DNA of 14,933 nucleotides from Clostridiales bacterium (lineage in GTDB: Bacteria > Bacillota_A > Clostridia > Christensenellales > Borkfalkiaceae). The number at the start of each line of letters is the position of its first letter. The first letter of the stretch is position 1. The notes beneath the pieces are model-generated. The model made no database searches and had not been told where the DNA came from. It saw only the letters and a program-made list of their open reading frames with translations. The stretch is from contig SVHQ01000023.1 in the NCBI GenBank assembly GCA_015055785.1, positions 1 to 14,933 on the forward strand, in the 5' to 3' direction. The translations under genes and the position numbers were made by a program. This document shows, in pieces, positions 1,265-11,180 of this stretch.

Positions 1265-1429
1265 TTATTTAGACTCTTTGTGTTCCGTATGCTTCTTGCA
1301 GAAAGGGCAATACTTGGAAAGTACAAGTCTGTCAGGATCGTTCTTTTTGTTCTTAATGCTGTCGTAATTTCTACGCTTGCATTCGGTGCATTCAAACGTA
1401 ATTTTAGCTCTAGCGGTCTTAACTGCCAT
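1265..1429 (-). CDS. rpmG: 50S ribosomal protein L33 (zinc-ribbon form)
   Basis: The 54-residue protein begins [18 protein letters not shown] and carries two CxxC pairs, C14/C17 and C41/C44, which form the zinc ribbon of C+ type L33 paralogues. L33 is a small protein of the large ribosomal subunit near the E site. The segment [19 protein letters not shown] is typical. A GGAG lies shortly before the ATG at 1429. It is the first gene of the rpmG-secE-nusG unit, directly behind the promoter at 1479-1507. The zinc-binding form suggests that a zinc-independent paralogue may exist elsewhere in the genome, but that is inference. Confidence 0.96.
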
Positions 1430-1478
1430 AATAAAACTCCATACAAAAAATTACACCCCTCTTTGGGTGCGTGCATAA

Positions 1479-1507
1479 AGTTTACCACACTTTAGAGGGG
1501 TTGTCAA
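1479..1507 (-). promoter_or_regulatory. SigA-type promoter for rpmG-secE-nusG
   Basis: On the minus strand TTGACA (1502-1507) is separated by 17 bp from TAAACT (1479-1484), which has an upstream TG-G extended -10 element. The -35 matches consensus fully and the -10 matches at four of six bases. An 8-bp inverted repeat, ACCCCTCT/AGAGGGGT, has one arm in the spacer (1494-1501) and the other in the early transcript (1455-1462). Confidence 0.75.
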
Positions 1508-1654
1508 TCTTTTTTGAAAGCTTTTTCAAACTTTTTTTATTTTTTATCAAATATTTTTTCAAGAGAGTTTTTCAACACCTTCTCCGTCATATTTACGCCT
1601 ATATTATATATTGTATAGAAAAATATGTCAAATAAATATCGAACTTTATTCACA

Positions 1655-1689
1655 TAAAAATAAAAGCGATGAGCAAAACCCACCGCTTT
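1655..1689 (-). terminator. intrinsic terminator of the two-gene membrane-protein operon
   Basis: On the minus strand an 11-bp stem (1679-1689 with 1663-1673), closed through two G-U pairs, has a five-base loop and is followed by a TTTTATTTTT tract. The wobble pairs are compatible only in the minus-strand RNA, which supports the direction. It lies 48 bp after the stop codon of the 315-residue membrane protein. Confidence 0.8.
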
Positions 1690-1736
1690 CAACGAACCTT
1701 TATTTATTAAAATTAGCAAATTTGCTTTTTATTTTA

Positions 1737-2684
1737 TTACACAAAGAAAATAACCAATAATATCGCACCGCCTATCGCTAATAACAAAGCAATCAAAGCT
1801 TCTTGTATAGCCTTAAATATATTAAAATCTTCTCCCTTTTTTCCGAATAAGTCCAAAAAATAATCCTTTTTATAATCTATAGAAAATACTTTTATTCCCA
1901 AAAATATAAGTAAAGCACTTGCGGCAATTAACGAAAAGAGAGATTTAGGAGCCGTATAAATCCATGCGCCTACGCCAATTAATATTGTAGCCACACGAAC
2001 CCCAAAACCAAGTCGTTTTGCTTGTTTTGCCTTATCTGCAACCTTTTGCGAAACTAAATAATGATAATATCCATATCCGTTATGCATATTTACAATAAAC
2101 TCATAATTCGTTCCGTTATACTCAAAACCAATCACTGCTATTGGCACCAATACAGCTGTTGCATTCCAACTATTTAAACATAATTCAGCATCCGCCGATG
2201 GACTTTTTCTTCTTGCGTATGATTTAATATCATAAGAAAGTTGTCCACTTGTGTATACACAAGAATCGTTATAAATATCCCCATCCAAATCATCTACATG
2301 GGACAGCTTATAAAAGCGTTCATCATTTCTTCCTACAAATTTTACAGGTTTGCAGCTCTCATAAATACTTTTATAAAAATATTCGGAAAACGTATTCTTT
2401 TCTGTATTATGCGTTGTCGTAATTTGGTCGTATGTTTCCGTGGTAACATCCCATGTGTAGGTTACTGTTGCTTGGACGTAATAATCAGGGAAATAATATT
2501 TTTTGAATTTTAGTTTATCGTTGGAAGTTGATAAAAGTTTATTTAAAAAGTTTTGGTCTATTCCCTTGATTTCTCGTAAATGATTTTTGGCAATATTGCA
2601 ACATTCATCTCTGTTATAATTGCCTTTTGCTTCCACTAATTTATCACACCAATCAAATTGCGTATTACAATTTTCCACCGCCAT
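1737..2684 (-). CDS. membrane protein of unknown function with a cysteine-containing N-terminus
   Basis: I do not recognise a named family for the whole 315-residue protein. It has a soluble N-terminal part of about 225 residues without a signal peptide, with cysteines at 6, 13, 28 and 29 near the start. Three hydrophobic spans follow at about 227-243, 248-266 and 292-315, the last ending the protein. The segment LVPIAVIGFEYNGTNYEFIVNMHNG (about 179-203) resembles, from memory, the Y-x-G-x-x-Y-x-F-x-VNG motif before the transmembrane helices of zinc-ribbon membrane proteins in Firmicutes; a canonical CxxC ribbon is absent here. An AGAGGTG site precedes the ATG at 2684. It is the second gene of a two-gene operon, 26 bp after the 151-residue membrane protein. 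It probably sits in the cytoplasmic membrane with its large domain in the cytoplasm. Confidence 0.85.
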   Translation of the reverse strand: MAVENCNTQFDWCDKLVEAKGNYNRDECCNIAKNHLREIKGIDQNFLNKLLSTSNDKLKFKKYYFPDYYVQATVTYTWDVTTETYDQITTTHNTEKNTFSEYFYKSIYESCKPVKFVGRNDERFYKLSHVDDLDGDIYNDSCVYTSGQLSYDIKSYARRKSPSADAELCLNSWNATAVLVPIAVIGFEYNGTNYEFIVNMHNGYGYYHYLVSQKVADKAKQAKRLGFGVRVATILIGVGAWIYTAPKSLFSLIAASALLIFLGIKVFSIDYKKDYFLDLFGKKGEDFNIFKAIQEALIALLLAIGGAILLVIFFV

Positions 2685-2710
2685 GGTTCACCTCTTTTGT
2701 GTAAAATTAT

Positions 2711-3166
2711 TTATGAAACCGTTTTCCCTTCGCTTTCTACATTTTTGCTCTTTTTTTCTTTGACCATTTTAACAATAAATACTACAATATCAATGATTGC
2801 CAATATCATTTTAAAAGCCAAATAAAATACGCCAATAAGCAAACAAAATATCGTAGTAATTACAAGCGAGACTAACGCAGTACGGAACGGATGATTTTGC
2901 ACGGTAACAGCAGAAGAAGAAACACTCACCTCATAATCTCTAGAACCTCTTCTTGCACCATCTCTCATGCTATTAAACATCGTTTTTAAATGGAAACCGA
3001 TAACAGGAATGGAACAAAAAAATCCACCCACCAACCAAAAACCAAATGTTTTTTGCTGGAAAAATACATACAGTCCTCCAAACATCATTATCGCTGCAAA
3101 AATCAACCATACGCATTTCCAAACAAACCCTGCGATGGTCTGAATCCCTTCTCTCTTTTTTGCCAT
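2711..3166 (-). CDS. small multi-span membrane protein of unknown function
   Basis: The 151-residue product has about four hydrophobic spans: roughly 10-34, 40-60, 95-117 and 118-135. A polar stretch at 62-92 separates the pairs, and the C-terminus is highly charged (KMVKEKKSKN). The ATG at 3166 is chosen because GGAGG lies seven bases upstream; a longer reading frame from 3226 would place its first codons inside the promoter and operator. It is the first gene of the operon that is divergent from the XRE regulator and is followed by the 315-residue membrane protein. I cannot name a family. Its operator arrangement matches that of the MACPF gene, so the products may act together, for example as a partner or a protection factor, but that is inference. 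Confidence 0.85.
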   Translation of the reverse strand: MAKKREGIQTIAGFVWKCVWLIFAAIMMFGGLYVFFQQKTFGFWLVGGFFCSIPVIGFHLKTMFNSMRDGARRGSRDYEVSVSSSAVTVQNHPFRTALVSLVITTIFCLLIGVFYLAFKMILAIIDIVVFIVKMVKEKKSKNVESEGKTVS

Positions 3167-3192
3167 AAGAAACCTCCATAATATTATTTTTT

Positions 3193-3207
3193 TAGCAAAA
3201 TATGCTA
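3193..3207. promoter_or_regulatory. operator O1, TAGCA-N5-TGCTA palindrome
   Basis: The 15-bp sequence TAGCAAAATATGCTA is a palindrome of two 5-bp arms. It lies about +4 to +18 of the predicted minus-strand operon transcript, with 11 bp between coordinate 3207 and the -10 box at 3218. The same arms and spacing recur at 3779-3793 before the MACPF gene. Placement downstream of the start site suits a repressor, most simply the XRE protein encoded next door. Confidence 0.7.
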
Positions 3208-3217
3208 ATTTTATTTT

Positions 3218-3246
3218 ATTATACATATTTATTTTGCTATTGTCAA
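3218..3246 (-). promoter_or_regulatory. consensus promoter of the membrane-protein operon
   Basis: On the minus strand a perfect TTGACA (3241-3246) is 17 bp from a perfect TATAAT (3218-3223). The spacer contains an extra TAGCA half-site (TGCTA at 3235-3239 on the plus strand). A promoter this close to consensus would be very active unless repressed, which fits the operator at 3193-3207. Confidence 0.85.
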
Positions 3247-3253
3247 TTATATT

Positions 3254-3282
3254 TTAGCTTTTTTTGCTATTTTTTGTATGAT
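3254..3282 (+). promoter_or_regulatory. probable xre promoter overlapped by operator O2
   Basis: TATGAT at 3277-3282 is one base from consensus, with a weak -35 candidate TTAGCT at 3254-3259 seventeen bases upstream. The imperfect palindrome TAGCT-N5-TGCTA (3255-3269) covers the -35 and spacer, and another half-site TAGCA lies at 3283-3287 just after the -10. This layout would allow the XRE protein to repress its own gene. The weak -35 makes the promoter call less certain than the other two. Confidence 0.5.
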
Positions 3283-3309
3283 TAGCACGAATTGAGGGGG
3301 AATAAAATT

Positions 3310-3648
3310 ATGTATCGAATTCATGAACTAAGGTTAGCTGCGGGATTAACGCAAAGAGAATTGGCTGAAAAAATCGGCGTAAAAAACTATACTGTTGCAA
3401 ATTGGGAACAAAACCGCACAGAGCCCAGTATAAAAGATTTAATTGATTTAGCCAACTATTTCGAATGTAGCGTTGATTATTTAATCGGCAGAGAAAATGA
3501 TTTCGGACAAGTAATTGTTTTTAAAAATGGAGAAAAAGAATATGCCGACCTGCTTTGTTTATATAATAGCTTGTCTGAAGAAAGAAAAAAAATAATACAA
3601 TTACTTTTACATGATTTAAAAGCTCTCACCGATATAGAAACAAAATAA
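3310..3648 (+). CDS. XRE-family helix-turn-helix transcriptional regulator
   Basis: The 112-residue protein has a Cro/CI-type DNA-binding domain at residues 3-60. The segments LRLAAGLTQRELAEKIGV, VANWEQNRTEPS and LANYFECSVDYLIGR are textbook HTH_3 features. The tail of about 45 residues, charged and helical, may serve dimerisation. The ATG at 3310 is chosen because AGGGGG lies nine bases upstream; the TTG at 3292 would overlap that site. It sits between two operons whose promoters carry the same TAGCA-N5-TGCTA palindrome, and its own promoter region has an imperfect copy, so it is the obvious candidate to bind them. There is no peptidase domain of the ImmR/ImmA kind. Repression is inferred from operator position. 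Confidence 0.93.
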   Translation: MYRIHELRLAAGLTQRELAEKIGVKNYTVANWEQNRTEPSIKDLIDLANYFECSVDYLIGRENDFGQVIVFKNGEKEYADLLCLYNSLSEERKKIIQLLLHDLKALTDIETK

Positions 3649-3688
3649 AATTAAGCCTACTAGATAATTTCTGGTAGGCTTAATTTTT
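3649..3688 (+). terminator. intrinsic terminator after xre
   Basis: A 12-bp perfect stem (3649-3660 with 3674-3685) with a 13-base loop ends in ATTTTT. It begins directly at the xre stop codon and isolates xre from the MACPF promoter 50 bp downstream. Confidence 0.85.
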
Positions 3689-3739
3689 AGATAACTACTT
3701 TTCGCATAAATTAAAAATAATAAAAATTGCTAATTATAC

Positions 3740-3768
3740 TTGACAGTAGTAAAAATTACATGTATAAT
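3740..3768 (+). promoter_or_regulatory. consensus promoter of the MACPF lipoprotein gene
   Basis: A perfect TTGACA (3740-3745) is 17 bp from a perfect TATAAT (3763-3768). A half-site TGCTA lies at 3728-3732, eight bases before the -35, and the full operator O3 follows the start site. The predicted start is near 3775, giving a short leader of about 39 nt before the ATG at 3814. Confidence 0.87.
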
Positions 3769-3778
3769 TTAATTATAT

Positions 3779-3793
3779 TAGCAGTTATTGCTA
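3779..3793. promoter_or_regulatory. operator O3, TAGCA-N5-TGCTA palindrome
   Basis: The 15-bp sequence TAGCAGTTATTGCTA has the same arms and spacer length as O1. Coordinate 3779 is 11 bp after the end of the -10 box, the same offset as O1 from its own promoter. This identical geometry at two promoters argues for control by the same protein. It would block initiation or early elongation of the MACPF gene. Confidence 0.7.
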
Positions 3794-3813
3794 TTTTTTA
3801 GGAGGTAATACAT

Positions 3814-5301
3814 ATGAAAAGGAAACCGATTTTAAAAGCACTCGCTTCAGCGTTACTCACAATTTCAACAATTATGAGTGGATGTACTTTCAATCCTGAT
3901 GATTTTAATAAAGTAATGGATAACTATTTTAAGAATTACAAAGCGATGTCGAAAGTGGAAACAGGCAGCTATGAAAAATTTAAGGATATCAACGTTGACT
4001 CATCCTATCTTGGTTATGGATATAATGTTATCGATGACCCCTATATAGATAAAAATTGCATCAATTTAAGCGCGCCTATTATCGATATGAGTAAAATTGA
4101 TAACGTTAATCTGCGTATGATTAAAGAAAATCAAGCATACGTACAAGATTATCAAAGCGCAACTATGGAAGATTTTTATAAAAATTTTGCAACAAATATT
4201 AATGCGTATGGAAAAACAGGTAAAATGTTTGCCGGTGGATTAAAGTTAGACTTTGCCACCAGCACCTCCGAAAAAAAATACTACCAATTTTACAAACACG
4301 TTTATGAAATTCGTTCATTTAATATTTATATCACAAATTCTATTGAATCCATCAAAGAGATATTATCCGAACCTTTCAAAAAAGACCTACAGCAAATGGC
4401 TCCCAATGATTTGTTTAATAAATATGGTACACATATGATAAAAGAAGCTGTCATGGGAGGAAAAATAGAAATCAATTCCACCTATTCTTCCGAAACAGTA
4501 AGCTCCTCTACAAGCGTTGACGCTGCAGTTAATGCGCATATAAAATTCTTAAAAGGTAAATCCTTTAATGTAGAAGCTGGCGTAAAATATGAAAATGCTT
4601 TAACACAGCAACAAATAACAGAAAAAACCGAAATAAAACAATATGGTGGAGCTTTAGTTGATTTACATACCCGTGAATCATTGGCGGAAAATTACGCAAA
4701 ATGGGTGGAATCTTTCGACAATAAATTAGAATATTCCGCTCTCTGCGGTATCGTAGGTGAACATTCCCTTGTCCCGCTTTGGGAATTATTACCCGAAGGC
4801 AACGAAGCAAGAGCCGCAGAATTGGAAAATACTTTCATTGAATTAAGTGAAAATGTCTATGATGAACTGTGTTCCAACTTCCCTTTCTCCGGAGATGTTT
4901 TCTTTGAAGATTACTATACGGGAAATACCATAACCGTAGACAAAAACAATCCTTACATTCATTTTACAAACGAAATACCCAATATCCAGCGATATTACGA
5001 GAAGGGTTATAACAAAATGGAAATTTATTTCAGTTTCTACACCAAAGGTACTTGGACATTATTCGGTGGCAATGTTAATATTCAAGGCTATCTCTGTCCC
5101 AACGAAAATACAAGCAATAACATCTTCTACTTTGATCGAGCCTCTGACACAGATGGAAAAACAATCGAATACACAGTTATCACCGACTTAGTTTGGTTTA
5201 AGGATAGTAAAAAAATATATCTCATCTTCCGCAATGGAAATAAAACCGAGTCAGTTGACATCAACAAAATAACATTTAAGGTAAGAATTTATAAGGAATA
5301 A
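3814..5301 (+). CDS. MACPF/perforin-domain lipoprotein
   Basis: The 495-residue protein starts with a basic n-region and hydrophobic stretch ending in the lipobox MSGC, with C24 as the likely lipidated residue, so it should be anchored on the outer face of the membrane. The MACPF signature YGTHMIKEAVMGG lies at 204-216 (YGTH 204-207, bend glycines 215-216). The flanking segments at about 136-170 and 222-275 correspond to the regions that become membrane hairpins in pore-forming members. W297 and the segment LVPLWELLPEGNEAR (319-333) match the end of the domain. The last 140 residues are rich in aromatic and beta-prone segments and may be a binding domain I do not recognise. AGGAGG lies eight bases before the ATG at 3814. 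MACPF proteins include complement, perforin and antibacterial toxins of Bacteroides; some bacterial members have no shown lytic activity. Pore formation here is inference. Confidence 0.92.
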   Translation: MKRKPILKALASALLTISTIMSGCTFNPDDFNKVMDNYFKNYKAMSKVETGSYEKFKDINVDSSYLGYGYNVIDDPYIDKNCINLSAPIIDMSKIDNVNLRMIKENQAYVQDYQSATMEDFYKNFATNINAYGKTGKMFAGGLKLDFATSTSEKKYYQFYKHVYEIRSFNIYITNSIESIKEILSEPFKKDLQQMAPNDLFNKYGTHMIKEAVMGGKIEINSTYSSETVSSSTSVDAAVNAHIKFLKGKSFNVEAGVKYENALTQQQITEKTEIKQYGGALVDLHTRESLAENYAKWVESFDNKLEYSALCGIVGEHSLVPLWELLPEGNEARAAELENTFIELSENVYDELCSNFPFSGDVFFEDYYTGNTITVDKNNPYIHFTNEIPNIQRYYEKGYNKMEIYFSFYTKGTWTLFGGNVNIQGYLCPNENTSNNIFYFDRASDTDGKTIEYTVITDLVWFKDSKKIYLIFRNGNKTESVDINKITFKVRIYKE

Positions 5302-5327
5302 GAATTATACATACGCCCTTAAAGCAA

Positions 5328-5368
5328 TAAACCAGCAAGCGAAAACTTTCGCTTGCTGGTTTAACTTT
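5328..5368 (+). terminator. strong intrinsic terminator after the MACPF gene
   Basis: A 16-bp perfect stem (5328-5343 with 5348-5363) with a four-base loop is followed by ACTTTTT. It lies 27 bp after the MACPF stop. It may also stop transcripts of the convergent aminotransferase gene, whose RNA would leave the stem into a weaker T-rich run. Confidence 0.9.
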
Positions 5369-5381
5369 TTATATCCTTTAT

Positions 5382-6566
5382 TTACTTATATTCTTCTGCT
5401 AATTTTTTAAATAACGGCAAAGCGCGCTCGATTTGCTCTGTCTGTACACAGTAAGCCACGCGCACCCAGCCTTGCGCACCAAAATCTGCTCCGTTGACAA
5501 ATAACAGTTCGTATTTTTTCGCTCTCTCACAGAACGCCGCAACGTCCTCCTCTAAAGCTTTAACAAACAAATAAAACGCTCCGTCGGGATATACACAAGT
5601 ATAACCGTATTCCGTCAAGGCATTATATAACAAATCACGGTTGCGTTTATATACGCTCAAATCCGCGGTCAAGCCGTCGCATTCCGCCGCCACGCGCTGA
5701 AAAAGTGCAGGCGCGCATACAAAACCCAAAGCTCTGCCCGCGCCGCAAACCGCCGCATATACTTCCTTTCTTGCCGTCATGTACGGGCTTACCGCCACGT
5801 ATCCAATACGTTCCCCTGGCATGGATAAGGATTTGGAATAGGAATAGCAAACAATCGTGTCCTTATAATACTTCATGGGACAAGGCACCACTGTTTCTTT
5901 ATCATACACAAGTTCTCTATACGGCTCGTCGGAAATGAGATAGACGGGTCTGCCGTATTCCGCCGATTTTTCTTCCAAAATCGCCGCCAATTTTTGCATG
6001 GTTTCCACGCCGTATACCGCTCCCGAGGGATTGTTAGGAGAATTGATAAGCAAACCCCTCACGCGCGGATTTATCGCCTTTTTCAAAGCCTCGAAATCAG
6101 GCTGCATTTTTTCGTCGGAAGGCAGCACGACAAGCTTACAGCCCGCGCTCTTCACAAACACACCGTATTCAGGAAAATACGGCGCGAAAACGATAAACTC
6201 ATCGCCAGCATTCGCCAAGGCGTTAAAGGTGATTGTCAAGGACGCCGCCGCACCGCAGGTCATATACAAATCGTCGCCCGTCAAAGGTACGTCGAAGCGC
6301 CGTTGATAGTTCGCCGCGATTTTATCACGCACACCCTTATCCCCTTGCGCTGACGTGTAACCGTGCAGTGCCACCGACGGCATTTCCTGCACTATACGCA
6401 CAATCGCTTCATTCACTTCCTTAGGTGCAGGAACGGACGGATTTCCGATGGAAAAATCGAACACTTTCTCCGCACCAATCTCCGCCGAACGCTTTTTGGC
6501 ATATTCAAAAATTTCTCTTATCGTCGAGCGTTTGCTGCCCAAACGGTACATTTCCTGATTATACAT
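5382..6566 (-). CDS. PLP-dependent class I/II aminotransferase
   Basis: Transfers amino groups between an amino acid and a 2-oxo acid through pyridoxal phosphate. In the 394-residue protein the Schiff-base lysine is K245 in YSYSKSLS. The phosphate-binding arginine is R253 in PGERIGY. D213 and Y216 lie in ISDEPYRE, and the coenzyme and substrate asparagine lies in INSPNNPSG (about 174-182). The N-terminal GNPSVPAP motif is typical of aspartate-type fold I enzymes. The substrate cannot be decided; it resembles clostridial enzymes annotated as aspartate or aromatic aminotransferases. The ATG at 6566 has AGAGG eight bases upstream; the TTG at 6572 is too close to that site. It lies 65 bp after the DUF975 gene and is probably cotranscribed. 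Confidence 0.93.
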   Translation of the reverse strand: MYNQEMYRLGSKRSTIREIFEYAKKRSAEIGAEKVFDFSIGNPSVPAPKEVNEAIVRIVQEMPSVALHGYTSAQGDKGVRDKIAANYQRRFDVPLTGDDLYMTCGAAASLTITFNALANAGDEFIVFAPYFPEYGVFVKSAGCKLVVLPSDEKMQPDFEALKKAINPRVRGLLINSPNNPSGAVYGVETMQKLAAILEEKSAEYGRPVYLISDEPYRELVYDKETVVPCPMKYYKDTIVCYSYSKSLSMPGERIGYVAVSPYMTARKEVYAAVCGAGRALGFVCAPALFQRVAAECDGLTADLSVYKRNRDLLYNALTEYGYTCVYPDGAFYLFVKALEEDVAAFCERAKKYELLFVNGADFGAQGWVRVAYCVQTEQIERALPLFKKLAEEYK

Positions 6567-9017: not shown

Positions 9018-11180
9018 TTATAATTTCACTGTGCCATCTATGCAAACCACTTCCGTAGCAGGAACACCCCTATTCCAGTTATCCCCTTTTTCTATTGCAT
9101 TCCATTGTTCCACCGTGCCGTTAAAAGTAATACTTTTTAAATTCGTACACCAGTTGAATGCTTCTTCACCAATACTCGCTAAATTTTCTCCGAGCACAAT
9201 ACTTTTCAAACTATAACAGCCCTCAAATGCATGAGCTCCAATAATTTCCAAATTCAATCCAAAATCAATAATTGATAAGTAGCTACAATCTTGAAAAGCC
9301 TTTTCTCCAATACTTACTGTACAATCAGAAAACACCACTTTCGTCAGCGCGTCATTATGTCCAAATGCATGATATTTAATTTCTTTTATATTATCGGGTA
9401 TAACCAACTCCGTTAATAAGTCATTTCCTATATATAATTTAATCGGATTTTCATACCCTTCTGCATATTCTGACACGTAATCAAGCGGATTTGACCAATA
9501 TCCCTCAAATACAATTCCGCACCAATCACCAATATCTCCTTTATAATAAACATTCTTTATATTATTCCCCACAACAAAAGACATCCCTCCCACAGAGGAA
9601 GATACATTTGAACAAAAGAAGGTATATTCCCCAATAGTTTTAACTCTTTTACCAATGGTTAAATCTATTAAATGGGAACAATTCATAAATGCTTCTCCTC
9701 CCACATACTCCACATTATCGCCTATAATCGCACTATTTATATTCGCGCCAAAAAAGGCTTGCTTTTTTATCTCTTTAACAGTATTTGGAATAACTAAATT
9801 CTCAATTAATTGGTCTTCAATGTACCAATTCACTCCTAACGCCAATGGATTTGATGTTACTGTCTCTGCAGAATTAAAATTTTCAAATGTAATTTTACAC
9901 CAATCCTCAATCTTTCCATTATAATATACATTTTCTAAATTGCCAAATTTAATCACTTCATCGCTAAATGTCTCAAAGCGCGCCAATACACCATCTATTT
10001 GTTTTACCGTACTTGCAATTGTTATATTTTTCAAATTACAATCTTCTTCAAAAATATCCCAATCAATATATTCAACCCCCTCATCAAATGTACAATTCTG
10101 TATATTGTTGCTAAGTAAAAAACACTCAGATTTCAATTCTTTCACACCACCAATAAACACATCTGTCAAATTATTACAACCTGCAAATGCACAACTTTCA
10201 ATGCTTGCATTTCCATTTCCAATAATTTTTATACTTTTTAAATTCCGACAATTTTCAAAAGCATGTTTACCAATATTCGTATACCCATTAATTACCAGCT
10301 TTTCCAATCCATTATATCCAAAAAACGAATTTTCGCCGATATTCATCACCTCATTCGTATTTATCACCATTTCTTTTATCAATTGATTATTAATATAAAA
10401 TTTTTCAGTATAACATAATGGATTAACAGGAAATTGGATTTTTACCCAACTTTCTATATCACCTGTATAATAAACCTCTTCTAAAGTAATACCACCATCT
10501 CTAAATGCCATCTGATATATATTTTTTAAACCCTTTCCTAAAGTAAGCTTTTCAATGTTACAATTACTAAAAAGATTACCGCCTATCTCCTCCACACTAT
10601 CTCCAAGCTTCAGTTCTTTTAAATTAGAACAACCTTGAAACATATTCCATCCCAGGCTGGCTACTCCATCACCGATGACCACATGTTTCAAATTGGTACA
10701 CCCAATACATAAGTTACTCAATTCACCCGTAACACTATTGGGAATCTCAAGTTCTTCTAAGCTCGTACAATCACAGAATGCACCACTCCCAATTTTGGTT
10801 ACACTATTAGGAATGGCGATTTCCTCTAAACCTGAACACCCTTCAAACGCGCGCTCACCAATACTTATTACGTTTTCACCTATTGAAACACTTGTTATCG
10901 AAACGCAGTCTTTAAAAGCTTCATCGACAATCTTTATCACAGGCAACCCATTATATGTAGATGGAATAATAACATCCGAAGATTGATAAGTGCCAATCCC
11001 CACTACATTATAGCCACCTAAATATTGTTCCCCTACAAATTTTAAAGAATTTTCCAATTCTTCCTGAAAACTACCTATATCCCCATCATTGCCCTTATCG
11101 CAACTCGAAAAACCAATCACACCTATACCAATCGTTAATAAAGCCAATGCGCTAATTAAAACCTTTTTAATTCCTTTCAT
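9018..11180 (-). CDS. BspA-type leucine-rich-repeat (LRR_5) surface lipoprotein
   Basis: The 720-residue protein has a signal peptide with lipobox FSSC (C27 lipidated), so it should be displayed on the cell surface. From about residue 66 to the end it consists of LRR_5 repeats of about 23 residues with the pattern IPNSVTKIGSGAFCDCTSL. Three longer modules interrupt the repeats, each starting YYxGxIxxW (237-245, 419-427, 545-553) and reaching a xYIxxxL strand. The protein ends with an FNGTVEQW ... VVCIDGTVKL cap that is frequent in this family. Related proteins take part in adhesion or carbohydrate and host-protein binding, but many are untested. GGAGG precedes the ATG at 11180 by six bases. 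It is AT-richer than the neighbouring housekeeping genes. A structured RNA ends about 70 bp upstream and may be its leader. Confidence 0.92.
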   Translation of the reverse strand: MKGIKKVLISALALLTIGIGVIGFSSCDKGNDGDIGSFQEELENSLKFVGEQYLGGYNVVGIGTYQSSDVIIPSTYNGLPVIKIVDEAFKDCVSITSVSIGENVISIGERAFEGCSGLEEIAIPNSVTKIGSGAFCDCTSLEELEIPNSVTGELSNLCIGCTNLKHVVIGDGVASLGWNMFQGCSNLKELKLGDSVEEIGGNLFSNCNIEKLTLGKGLKNIYQMAFRDGGITLEEVYYTGDIESWVKIQFPVNPLCYTEKFYINNQLIKEMVINTNEVMNIGENSFFGYNGLEKLVINGYTNIGKHAFENCRNLKSIKIIGNGNASIESCAFAGCNNLTDVFIGGVKELKSECFLLSNNIQNCTFDEGVEYIDWDIFEEDCNLKNITIASTVKQIDGVLARFETFSDEVIKFGNLENVYYNGKIEDWCKITFENFNSAETVTSNPLALGVNWYIEDQLIENLVIPNTVKEIKKQAFFGANINSAIIGDNVEYVGGEAFMNCSHLIDLTIGKRVKTIGEYTFFCSNVSSSVGGMSFVVGNNIKNVYYKGDIGDWCGIVFEGYWSNPLDYVSEYAEGYENPIKLYIGNDLLTELVIPDNIKEIKYHAFGHNDALTKVVFSDCTVSIGEKAFQDCSYLSIIDFGLNLEIIGAHAFEGCYSLKSIVLGENLASIGEEAFNWCTNLKSITFNGTVEQWNAIEKGDNWNRGVPATEVVCIDGTVKL

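What the first reader, a model, noticed from the sequence alone, without database searches (positions are those of the whole stretch)
3193..3793. One palindrome at the same position in two consensus promoters defines an XRE regulon
TAGCA-N5-TGCTA occurs exactly at 3193-3207 and 3779-3793. Each copy starts 11 bp after the -10 box of a perfect TTGACA-17-TATAAT promoter, one driving two membrane-protein genes leftward and the other a MACPF lipoprotein rightward. A third copy with one mismatch (3255-3269) overlaps the likely xre promoter. Single half-sites lie at 3235-3239, 3283-3287 and 3728-3732. The identical geometry implies that the XRE protein encoded between them represses both operons and itself. 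All three genes and both outputs then form one switch: strong promoters held off until a signal releases the repressor.
Basis: partly seen in the sequence, partly recalled or inferred. Interest (0 to 1): 0.78.

Follow-up and report, generated by a model that had tools for sequence, protein, structure and literature searches.

The report
XRE repressor switch with two outputs
A small bacterial repressor gene sits between two strong promoters carrying what look like its own DNA binding sites, one for two membrane proteins and one for a perforin-like surface protein, and it belongs to a large family of look-alike switches that keep the same layout but use different DNA words.

Summary
TAGCA-N5-TGCTA is exact only at 3193-3207 and 3779-3793, each 10 nt beyond a TTGACA-17-TATAAT promoter; 0 of 20,000 shuffles gave two copies. 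It is very probably the operator of the XRE protein encoded between them: the closest relatives' xre genes (L001/L002, L003, L004; 52-68% identity) carry exact copies just upstream, and L106 (50%) near copies. In six relatives' genomes 8 of 14 exact copies lie at xre; the rest look like chance. So it looks like a local cassette rather than a wide regulon; the window's own genome was not available.

The larger result: relatives share a three-operator layout near -23, +7 and +39 from TTGACA. It is detectable in 84 other loci and in 33 representatives, with locus-specific operator words that follow the XRE sequence. It resembles a lambda-type immunity region reused for chromosomal, often cell-envelope, genes. 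Of 92 loci checked, only the window showed a second controlled promoter (MACPF) in the stretch fetched. Binding and repression are inferred; the inducing signal is unknown.

The parts
3193..3207 (-). Operator O_dn of the leftward promoter, TAGCA-N5-TGCTA exact, about +5 to +19 of the inferred transcript
   Evidence: start of transcript inferred
3218..3246 (-). Leftward promoter TTGACA-17-TATAAT in front of the 151-aa and 315-aa membrane-protein genes
3225..3239 (-). Spacer operator O_sp of the leftward promoter; only the half-site next to -35 is intact (5 mismatches in all); L002 has an exact site at this place
3255..3269 (-). Operator O_up, one mismatch, at -23 from TTGACA; just upstream of the putative xre -10 box
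3277..3282 (+). Putative xre -10 box TATGAT (no good -35 found)
   Evidence: inference
3310..3648 (+). xre: 112-aa HTH_3 (Cro/CI-type) regulator; predicted HTH plus two C-terminal helices, no ligand domain seen
2711..3166 (-). Gene B: 151-aa protein with four hydrophobic segments, first gene of the leftward output
1737..2684 (-). Gene A: 315-aa protein with C-terminal hydrophobic helices; no Pfam, NCBIfam or PHROG family and no PDB fold match at E <= 0.001
3718..3732 (+). O_up-like site of the rightward promoter (2 mismatches), at -22 from TTGACA
3740..3768 (+). Rightward promoter TTGACA-17-TATAAT in front of the MACPF gene
3747..3761 (+). Weak O_sp-like site (TAGTA half-site; 4 mismatches in all), 32 bp before O_dn
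3779..3793 (+). Operator O_dn of the rightward promoter, exact
3814..5301 (+). 495-aa predicted lipoprotein with a MACPF/perforin domain (PF01823, E 8.5e-11); YGTH...GG motif and lipobox-like MSGC

Best explanation
A self-contained repressor switch. The 112-aa XRE protein, probably a dimer, binds TAGCA-N5-TGCTA. The perfect sites just after the start of both output transcripts (O_dn), perhaps helped by weaker sites in the -35/-10 spacer (O_sp) three helical turns away, keep RNA polymerase off or blocked on two consensus promoters: one for two membrane proteins, one for a MACPF lipoprotein. The upstream site (O_up) lies in the region of the xre promoter and limits xre expression. Sites step by about 30-32 bp, so dimers would lie on one face of the helix and could cooperate. 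Shown here: the sites, their fixed positions, their conservation with this XRE subgroup, and family-wide co-variation of operator with XRE sequence. Inferred: binding, repression, autoregulation, cooperation. Unknown: what lifts repression; no sensor domain was seen.
For: Sites and geometry exact and beyond chance. The closest loci of the genome scan (L001/L002, near-identical, 68%; L004 53%; L003 52%) have exact copies 50-112 bp upstream of the xre match; L106 (50%) has four one-mismatch sites; L010 (41%) one exact plus a CAGCA variant; L016 a GAGCA type. Only 6 of the 47 loci have a site within one mismatch in the 120 bp upstream. Exact copies are rare: 14 in six genomes, two of which (G001, G002) are close relatives; 8 of the 14 are at xre. 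Positions -23/+7/+39 recur in L002, L003, L004, L106 and L010, with different cargo. Family test on 84 regions without the TAGCA-group loci: strongest within-locus repeats at offsets 7&40, 7&39 and -22&8 (z 6.5-7.5); 33 representatives: 7&39 is top, z 6.6. Operator similarity follows XRE similarity (O_dn rho 0.28 with the recognition helix, 0 of 2,000 permutations; control region 0.04, 207 of 2,000), and Y27 of the recognition helix is the most associated column. Divergent promoter scoring at least 10 of 12: 107 of 136 XRE genes, against 7 of 136 co-directional and 27 of 680 shuffles.
Against: No binding or expression data. The spacer sites in the window are poor (4-5 mismatches), so the full three-site array is not intact here. 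The correlation of operator with the rest of the HTH (rho 0.29) is as high as with the recognition helix (0.28), so common descent explains at least part of it. Family-wide the downstream operators are only moderately palindromic (4.31 of 7 pairs against 3.71 in shuffles). The sixth genome, G006, has no exact copy at its xre. The reversed control pattern is as common per genome as the palindrome, so genome-wide counts alone show nothing. The xre -35 is not recognisable. The own genome could not be searched.
Confidence: 0.82

Rival explanations
1. Dual regulator: XRE bound at the spacer site also activates its own weak promoter, like lambda CI at OR2 (recalled), so the cassette is a bistable or hysteretic switch rather than a simple off-switch.
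For: The family-wide xre -10-like box peaks at offsets -27/-28, which would put O_sp just upstream of the xre -35 region, and no consensus xre -35 was seen by eye. [quoted passage not shown]
Against: No expression data; the spacer site in the window is only a half-site; the window's own -10-like box lies about 9 nt further out than the family peak; transcription starts are not mapped.
Confidence: 0.3
2. The palindromes act as RNA hairpins at the 5' ends of the output mRNAs or as terminators, not as operators.
For: O_dn lies within the first ~20 nt of both inferred transcripts and is self-complementary.
Against: Copies also lie in the spacer and upstream of the promoter; stems are 5 pairs; neither exact site is among the 5 terminator-like sites listed for 1400-5450; operator sequence follows the XRE protein. 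No RNA fold was computed.
Confidence: 0.04
3. The MACPF promoter is read mainly by another XRE of the same cell, and sharing the motif with the divergent promoter is cross-talk or a recent promoter copy.
For: MACPF relatives L115 and L116 have their own divergent small XRE genes and different palindromes at similar places (read by eye); related XRE genes are often several per genome. The two window promoters agree at 41 of 54 bases.
Against: In the window the MACPF gene directly follows this xre and its site is an exact copy; L115 and L116 show two MACPF genes each next to an XRE of their own.
Confidence: 0.08
4. Chance palindromes in AT-rich intergenic DNA.
For: At up to two mismatches the window total is not unusual.
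Against: Exact copies, identical geometry and conservation in relatives.
Confidence: 0.01

Closest known systems
Lambda/P22/434-type phage immunity region (repressor with three operators between divergent promoters; operator roles recalled)
   Same: Small Cro/CI-type HTH repressor, divergent strong promoter, three phased operators around both promoters, operator word varying with the repressor; P22 C2 and 434 repressor are among the solved relatives
   Different: Step is about 30-32 bp here instead of about 23-24 bp (recalled); no Cro-like partner in the leftward genes; chromosomal, often envelope, cargo; no self-cleaving domain seen
RstR family (NCBIfam NF041951)
   Same: Best NCBIfam hit, 54.4 bits, residues 3-100; alleles with differing specificity (recalled)
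   Different: Below the curated cut-off of 80; not filed as a member
ICEBs1 ImmR
   Same: Closest solved DNA-binding domain by sequence, 7t8i, E 2.3e-9
   Different: ImmR works with the ImmA protease (recalled); none among the five proteins scanned with Pfam, not searched further
Rco of pLS20
   Same: Overlapping divergent promoters of unequal strength, repeated sites, cooperative binding (PMC4207663: abstract and one Results section read)
   Different: Eight-bp motifs in two operators with DNA looping; conjugation cargo
CylR2/CylR1 of the enterococcal cytolysin
   Same: Small HTH repressor at overlapping divergent promoters controlling a pore-forming product, with a suspected membrane protein required for induction (PMC3709268 passages); CylR2 structures are among the fold matches (E about 1.3e-3)
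   Different: Cytolysin is a lantibiotic, not MACPF; here the membrane proteins lie on the repressed side, and sensing by them is only a hypothesis
C proteins of restriction-modification systems
   Same: Small HTH autoregulators; C.Kpn2I inhibits a promoter and acts as an elongation roadblock (PMC6237814 abstract)
   Different: No R-M genes recognised among the four cassette genes

Membership tests
XRE / Cro-CI type HTH_3 regulators | HTH_3 domain above the curated cut-off | tested here: met
   PF01381 60.3 bits against cut-off 23
Phage-type three-operator immunity switch | Three copies of one operator between repressor gene and divergent strong promoter | tested here: inconclusive
   Met as a family tendency: offsets -23/+7/+39. 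In the window itself the spacer copy is only a half-site
Phage-type three-operator immunity switch | Counter-repressor (Cro) on the divergent transcript | tested here: not met
   The two leftward proteins have no HTH hit in Pfam
Phage-type three-operator immunity switch | Repressor occupies the operators and is inducible | not testable with these tools
   No binding or expression data
RstR family NF041951 | Score at or above the curated cut-off of 80 bits | tested here: not met
   54.4 bits
ImmR/ImmA systems | Adjacent ImmA-type metalloprotease | tested here: inconclusive
   None among the four cassette proteins and one LRR protein scanned; other window ORFs and the genome not scanned
MACPF/perforin family (PF01823) | Pfam MACPF above cut-off, and YGTH...GG motif (motif recalled) | tested here: met
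   42.8 bits against cut-off 21.5; YGTHMIKEAVMGG at residue 204

The most novel reading that the evidence does not exclude
A large family of insulated, phage-immunity-like switches has been domesticated in gut Clostridia (Pumilibacteraceae and their relatives). Each copy keeps one rigid three-operator promoter layout but has evolved its own operator word and matching recognition helix, so that several such switches can run side by side in one cell without cross-talk. They gate mainly cell-envelope genes, including lipoproteins, BspA-type LRR proteins and MACPF proteins. The window holds a two-output version in which a MACPF gene has come under the same operator as the divergent membrane genes.
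Probability: 0.6. Interest if true: 0.75.

Novelty: new variant of a known kind. Interest (0 to 1): 0.62.

Why it matters
It turns one palindrome into a predictive rule. Given one of these XRE genes, one can look for its operators by position and read the likely binding word from the sequence. That offers a natural set of dozens of candidate repressor-operator pairs with a common geometry, useful for learning the HTH recognition code and for building orthogonal switches. It also suggests which envelope proteins of poorly cultured gut Clostridia, including perforin-like ones, are normally held silent and conditionally expressed.

Tried and rejected
Wide regulon: scanned six relatives' genomes for the exact palindrome. 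Of the 6 copies away from xre, four lie inside ORFs (L049, L050, L059, L061), one starts 5 bases after an ORF stop (L051), and one (L052) was not annotated but matches L061 at 379 of 400 bases; rejected as targets.

Composite promoter-plus-operator scan of 396 genomes of the order: 13 genomes had a match with up to one mismatch, two of them exact (G002's own xre locus and G147:C55, not followed up); the reversed control pattern gave about 19 matches by my count of the table, so beyond the xre locus this adds nothing.

Viral contigs: 12 stretches matched a pattern, none confirmed as a relative. Rfam: nothing at gathering thresholds. Gene A fold: no PDB match with E <= 0.001. Gene A relatives in 251 genomes of one family: 6 genomes with partial matches at E <= 1e-6, not followed up. 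Empty-site test: in the closest aminotransferase relative among 74 genomes (77%, L211) none of the other 14 window proteins tried had a match in the 15 kb fetched, so insertion of the cassette could not be shown.

A test of mean palindromicity by offset on 37 loci was weak and noisy (best z 3.1) and is not relied on; the repeat-matching test replaced it. In a phylum-wide sample (32 XRE genes from 29 loci) 25 have a divergent promoter score of at least 10, and 7 a co-directional one, with distances of 33-140 nt; some (L185, L193, L176) show similar spacing, so the layout is probably not exclusive to this group.

Rows dropped: near-identical XRE proteins (151 to 137); one XRE without enough upstream sequence; 44 of 136 lacking a score of at least 10, a 17-nt spacer or a full 120-nt region before the repeat tests; 8 rows from TAGCA-group loci, two of which (a second XRE at L106 and another XRE at L010) are not of the TAGCA type, for the 84-region test; two XRE genes without a cargo ORF, and cargo ORFs under 60 aa (107 to 105 to 91).

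Full report
What is in the window. Two intergenic regions flank a 112-aa XRE gene (3310-3648). To its left lie two genes for hydrophobic proteins (151 and 315 aa, minus strand), to its right a 495-aa MACPF lipoprotein. The exact palindrome TAGCA-N5-TGCTA occurs twice, at 3193-3207 and 3779-3793, each following TTGACA-17-TATAAT by 10 nt. Shuffles of the two regions (20,000) had a mean of 0.0019 exact copies and never two; 24 of 5,000 shared any identical 5-N5-5 palindrome arm. The two promoter-operator blocks agree at 41 of 54 bases, and at 19 of 32 outside the fixed boxes and arms. At up to two mismatches the number of sites in the window is ordinary.

Is it this XRE's operator? 55 XRE relatives were found; 48 of them and the window's protein were aligned. 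Of 47 loci found in species-representative genomes, six have a site within one mismatch in the 120 bp upstream of the xre match: L001 and L002 (near-identical, 68% XRE identity), L003 (52%), L004 (53%), L010 (41%) and L016 (48% over residues 3-69; one mismatch, in fact a GAGCA type). The other 41 do not. A further relative, L106 (50%), found in another genome set, has four one-mismatch sites upstream of xre and no exact one. In the six genomes holding L001-L004, L010 and L016 the exact palindrome occurs 14 times in all, and 8 copies are at xre; G001 and G002 are close relatives, and G006 has none at its xre. Of the other six copies four lie inside ORFs, one starts 5 bases after an ORF stop, and one (L052) was not annotated but matches L061 at 379 of 400 bases. 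The reversed control pattern occurs 2-6 times per genome, as often as the palindrome or more, so it is the placement, not the count, that carries the signal. The link of palindrome to this XRE subgroup is strong and the target set looks local.

Geometry. Measured from the first T of TTGACA in the divergent promoter, sites sit at -23, +7 and +39: L002 with 1, 0 and 0 mismatches; L003 0, 2 (at +10) and 0; L004 1, half-site and 0; L106 1, 2 and 1 (at +38), with further one-mismatch sites at -54 and +75; L010 0, a 3-mismatch CAGCA site, and a CAGCA-N5-TGCTG site at +40. The window's left promoter has 1, half-site and 0; the right promoter 2 (at -22), a weak half-site and 0. The cargo behind the promoter differs: predicted lipoprotein(s) in L002, a protein with one hydrophobic segment in L003, a BspA-like repeat protein in L004 (judged by eye), an eight-segment hydrophobic protein in L106 (L106 in 58).

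Generalisation. From 127 sources, 137 non-redundant XRE genes were taken, 136 with upstream DNA. A divergent promoter scoring at least 10 of 12 is found for 107 of 136, against 7 of 136 on the xre strand and 27 of 680 shuffles; at 11 or more it is 90, 2 and 2 of 680. For those at 11 or more, TTGACA lies a median 48 nt from the xre start (IQR 46-52, range 17-176). Ninety-two regions had a 17-nt spacer and full sequence. Comparing each region with itself against other regions, the strongest repeats are at offsets 7&40, 8&39, 7&39 and -22&8, with -23&39 also in the top list. Without the TAGCA-group loci (84 regions) 7&40, 7&39 and -22&8 lead (z 6.5-7.5). With one representative per cluster (33 of 84) the top pair is 7&39, z 6.6. 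The best second copy of each locus's own downstream operator falls at +5..+9 or -25..-20 in 56 of 84 loci against a null mean of 30.5, maximum 45; with at least 10 of 15 matches, 53 against 14.1, maximum 22. The downstream operators are only moderately palindromic: 4.31 of 7 pairs against 3.71 in shuffles, maximum 3.96. The operator words differ by locus and go with the recognition helix: for example VKNYT with TAGCA, IPRYT and FERYT with GAGCA, CSQKS with AGTAA or GAGAAA, ASNKA with GTGTAA, ISRQV with GCAAGA (read by eye). Mantel tests on 92: O_dn against recognition-helix identity rho 0.28, O_sp 0.19, both 0 of 2,000 permutations; control region 0.04, 207 of 2,000. The rest of the HTH gives 0.29 and 0.21, so descent and contacts are not separated by this test. 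Among pairs with the rest of the HTH under 50% identical, the 32 pairs with recognition-helix identity of at least 0.6 still share more of O_dn (9.97 of 15, against 8.09-8.38). Y27, in the predicted recognition helix (residues 26-33), is the most associated column; D43, outside it, is second.

The xre promoter. In 63 loci with TTGACA 40-62 nt from xre, a TATAAT-like box on the xre strand starts at -36..-25 in 50, against 17.8 expected (maximum 27), with peaks at -27 (19 loci) and -28 (14). At the peaks it overlaps the edge of O_up. In the window the likely box, TATGAT (3277-3282), starts 8 bases beyond O_up. No good xre -35 was seen. O_sp would then sit just upstream of the xre promoter, as lambda OR2 does for PRM (recalled), so activation at low XRE level is possible.

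Cargo. First ORFs of at least 60 aa behind the divergent promoter are envelope-type by a crude hydrophobicity and lipobox rule in 60 of 91, against 191 of 512 background ORFs from 46 loci (Fisher p 4.8e-7; the background was not purged of cargo genes). A second controlled promoter in the same fetched stretch was sought at 92 loci: four hits, of which L133 and L140 are the divergent promoter itself and L013 looks spurious, leaving only the window (flanks differ in length and only one-mismatch copies were sought, so others may be missed). MACPF relatives in two other genomes (L115, L116) have their own divergent small XRE genes and different palindromes at similar places (read by eye), which suggests that MACPF genes of this type can be put under such switches repeatedly; seven further weaker MACPF matches were only scanned for TAGCA sites (none within one mismatch).

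Mechanism. O_dn lies about +5 to +19 of the inferred transcript and O_sp between -35 and -10, so repression by exclusion or roadblock is the natural reading; C.Kpn2I, a small HTH controller, is reported to inhibit one promoter and to act as a roadblock (PMC6237814, abstract). The model of the XRE (mean pLDDT 88.6) shows an HTH and two C-terminal helices and no sensor domain. Closest solved relatives are ImmR, P22 C2 and 434 repressor by sequence; SinR and the phage Phi106 repressor bound to the antirepressor AimX are among the top fold matches, and CylR2 lower (E about 1.3e-3). What releases it is unknown; an antirepressor encoded elsewhere is one option. In the cytolysin system a suspected membrane protein, CylR1, is needed for induction (PMC3709268, passages), so a sensing role for the membrane genes is another idea to test; so is an immunity role towards the MACPF protein, since MACPF proteins are known antibacterial factors in Bacteroides (PMC8406203, passages). 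None has direct support here.

Novelty. Searches for XRE with palindrome and TAGCA, and for XRE with Christensenellales (order name recalled), returned no paper in the held library; searches on paralogous or orthogonal XRE repressors and on three-operator surface-protein switches listed nothing matching by title and start of abstract. The library is incomplete. The kind (autoregulated divergent repressor with repeated operators) is well known; the multi-copy, operator-diversified family with rigid spacing and much envelope cargo appears to be a new variant.

Limits. Own genome not held; organism unnamed; relatives are mostly metagenome-assembled Clostridia, with two named genera in Pumilibacteraceae. 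All function is inferred.

Noticed in passing
window 9018-11180: 720-aa BspA-type leucine-rich repeat protein (PF13306, six stretches) with a lipobox-like start (by eye) in the same window; no TAGCA site within two mismatches near it.
   Followed up: partly
window 1603-1631 (minus): A third perfect TTGACA-17-TATAAT promoter, in front of what look like rpmG-secE-nusG (names by eye), without an operator; a contrast for the two controlled ones.
   Followed up: no
L115 and L116: MACPF lipoprotein relatives with their own divergent small XRE genes and other palindromes in the promoter (ACAGCA-N3-TGCTGT; ACAT/ATGT type, by eye): same arrangement with a different word.
   Followed up: partly
L106: One locus carries two XRE genes with different operators: the TAGCA type, and a palindrome of another word in the spacer of a second divergent promoter before a predicted lipoprotein.
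   Followed up: partly
L009, L012, L018, L137; L014, L015, L041, L043: Recurrent cargo types behind the divergent promoter: zinc-ribbon-like plus transmembrane proteins (start MFCKNCGKEI) and a membrane family starting like MNYVEKNLRNGEE, in different genomes.
   Followed up: no
window 1737-2684: Gene A family (six sequences aligned) has conserved N-terminal stretches around FDWCDKL, DECCN and GRNDERFY and no Pfam, NCBIfam, PHROG or PDB fold match.
   Followed up: partly
L171-L199 (phylum sample): Some more distant Bacillota XRE loci (L185, L193, L176) also show similar sequences in the spacer and about 32 bp downstream, hinting that the layout is older than this group.
   Followed up: partly
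G147:C55:5650-5703 (L093): The only other exact match of the composite promoter-plus-operator pattern among 396 genomes, with a TACAAT -10 and a more GC-rich palindrome; relation to any XRE gene unknown.
   Followed up: no
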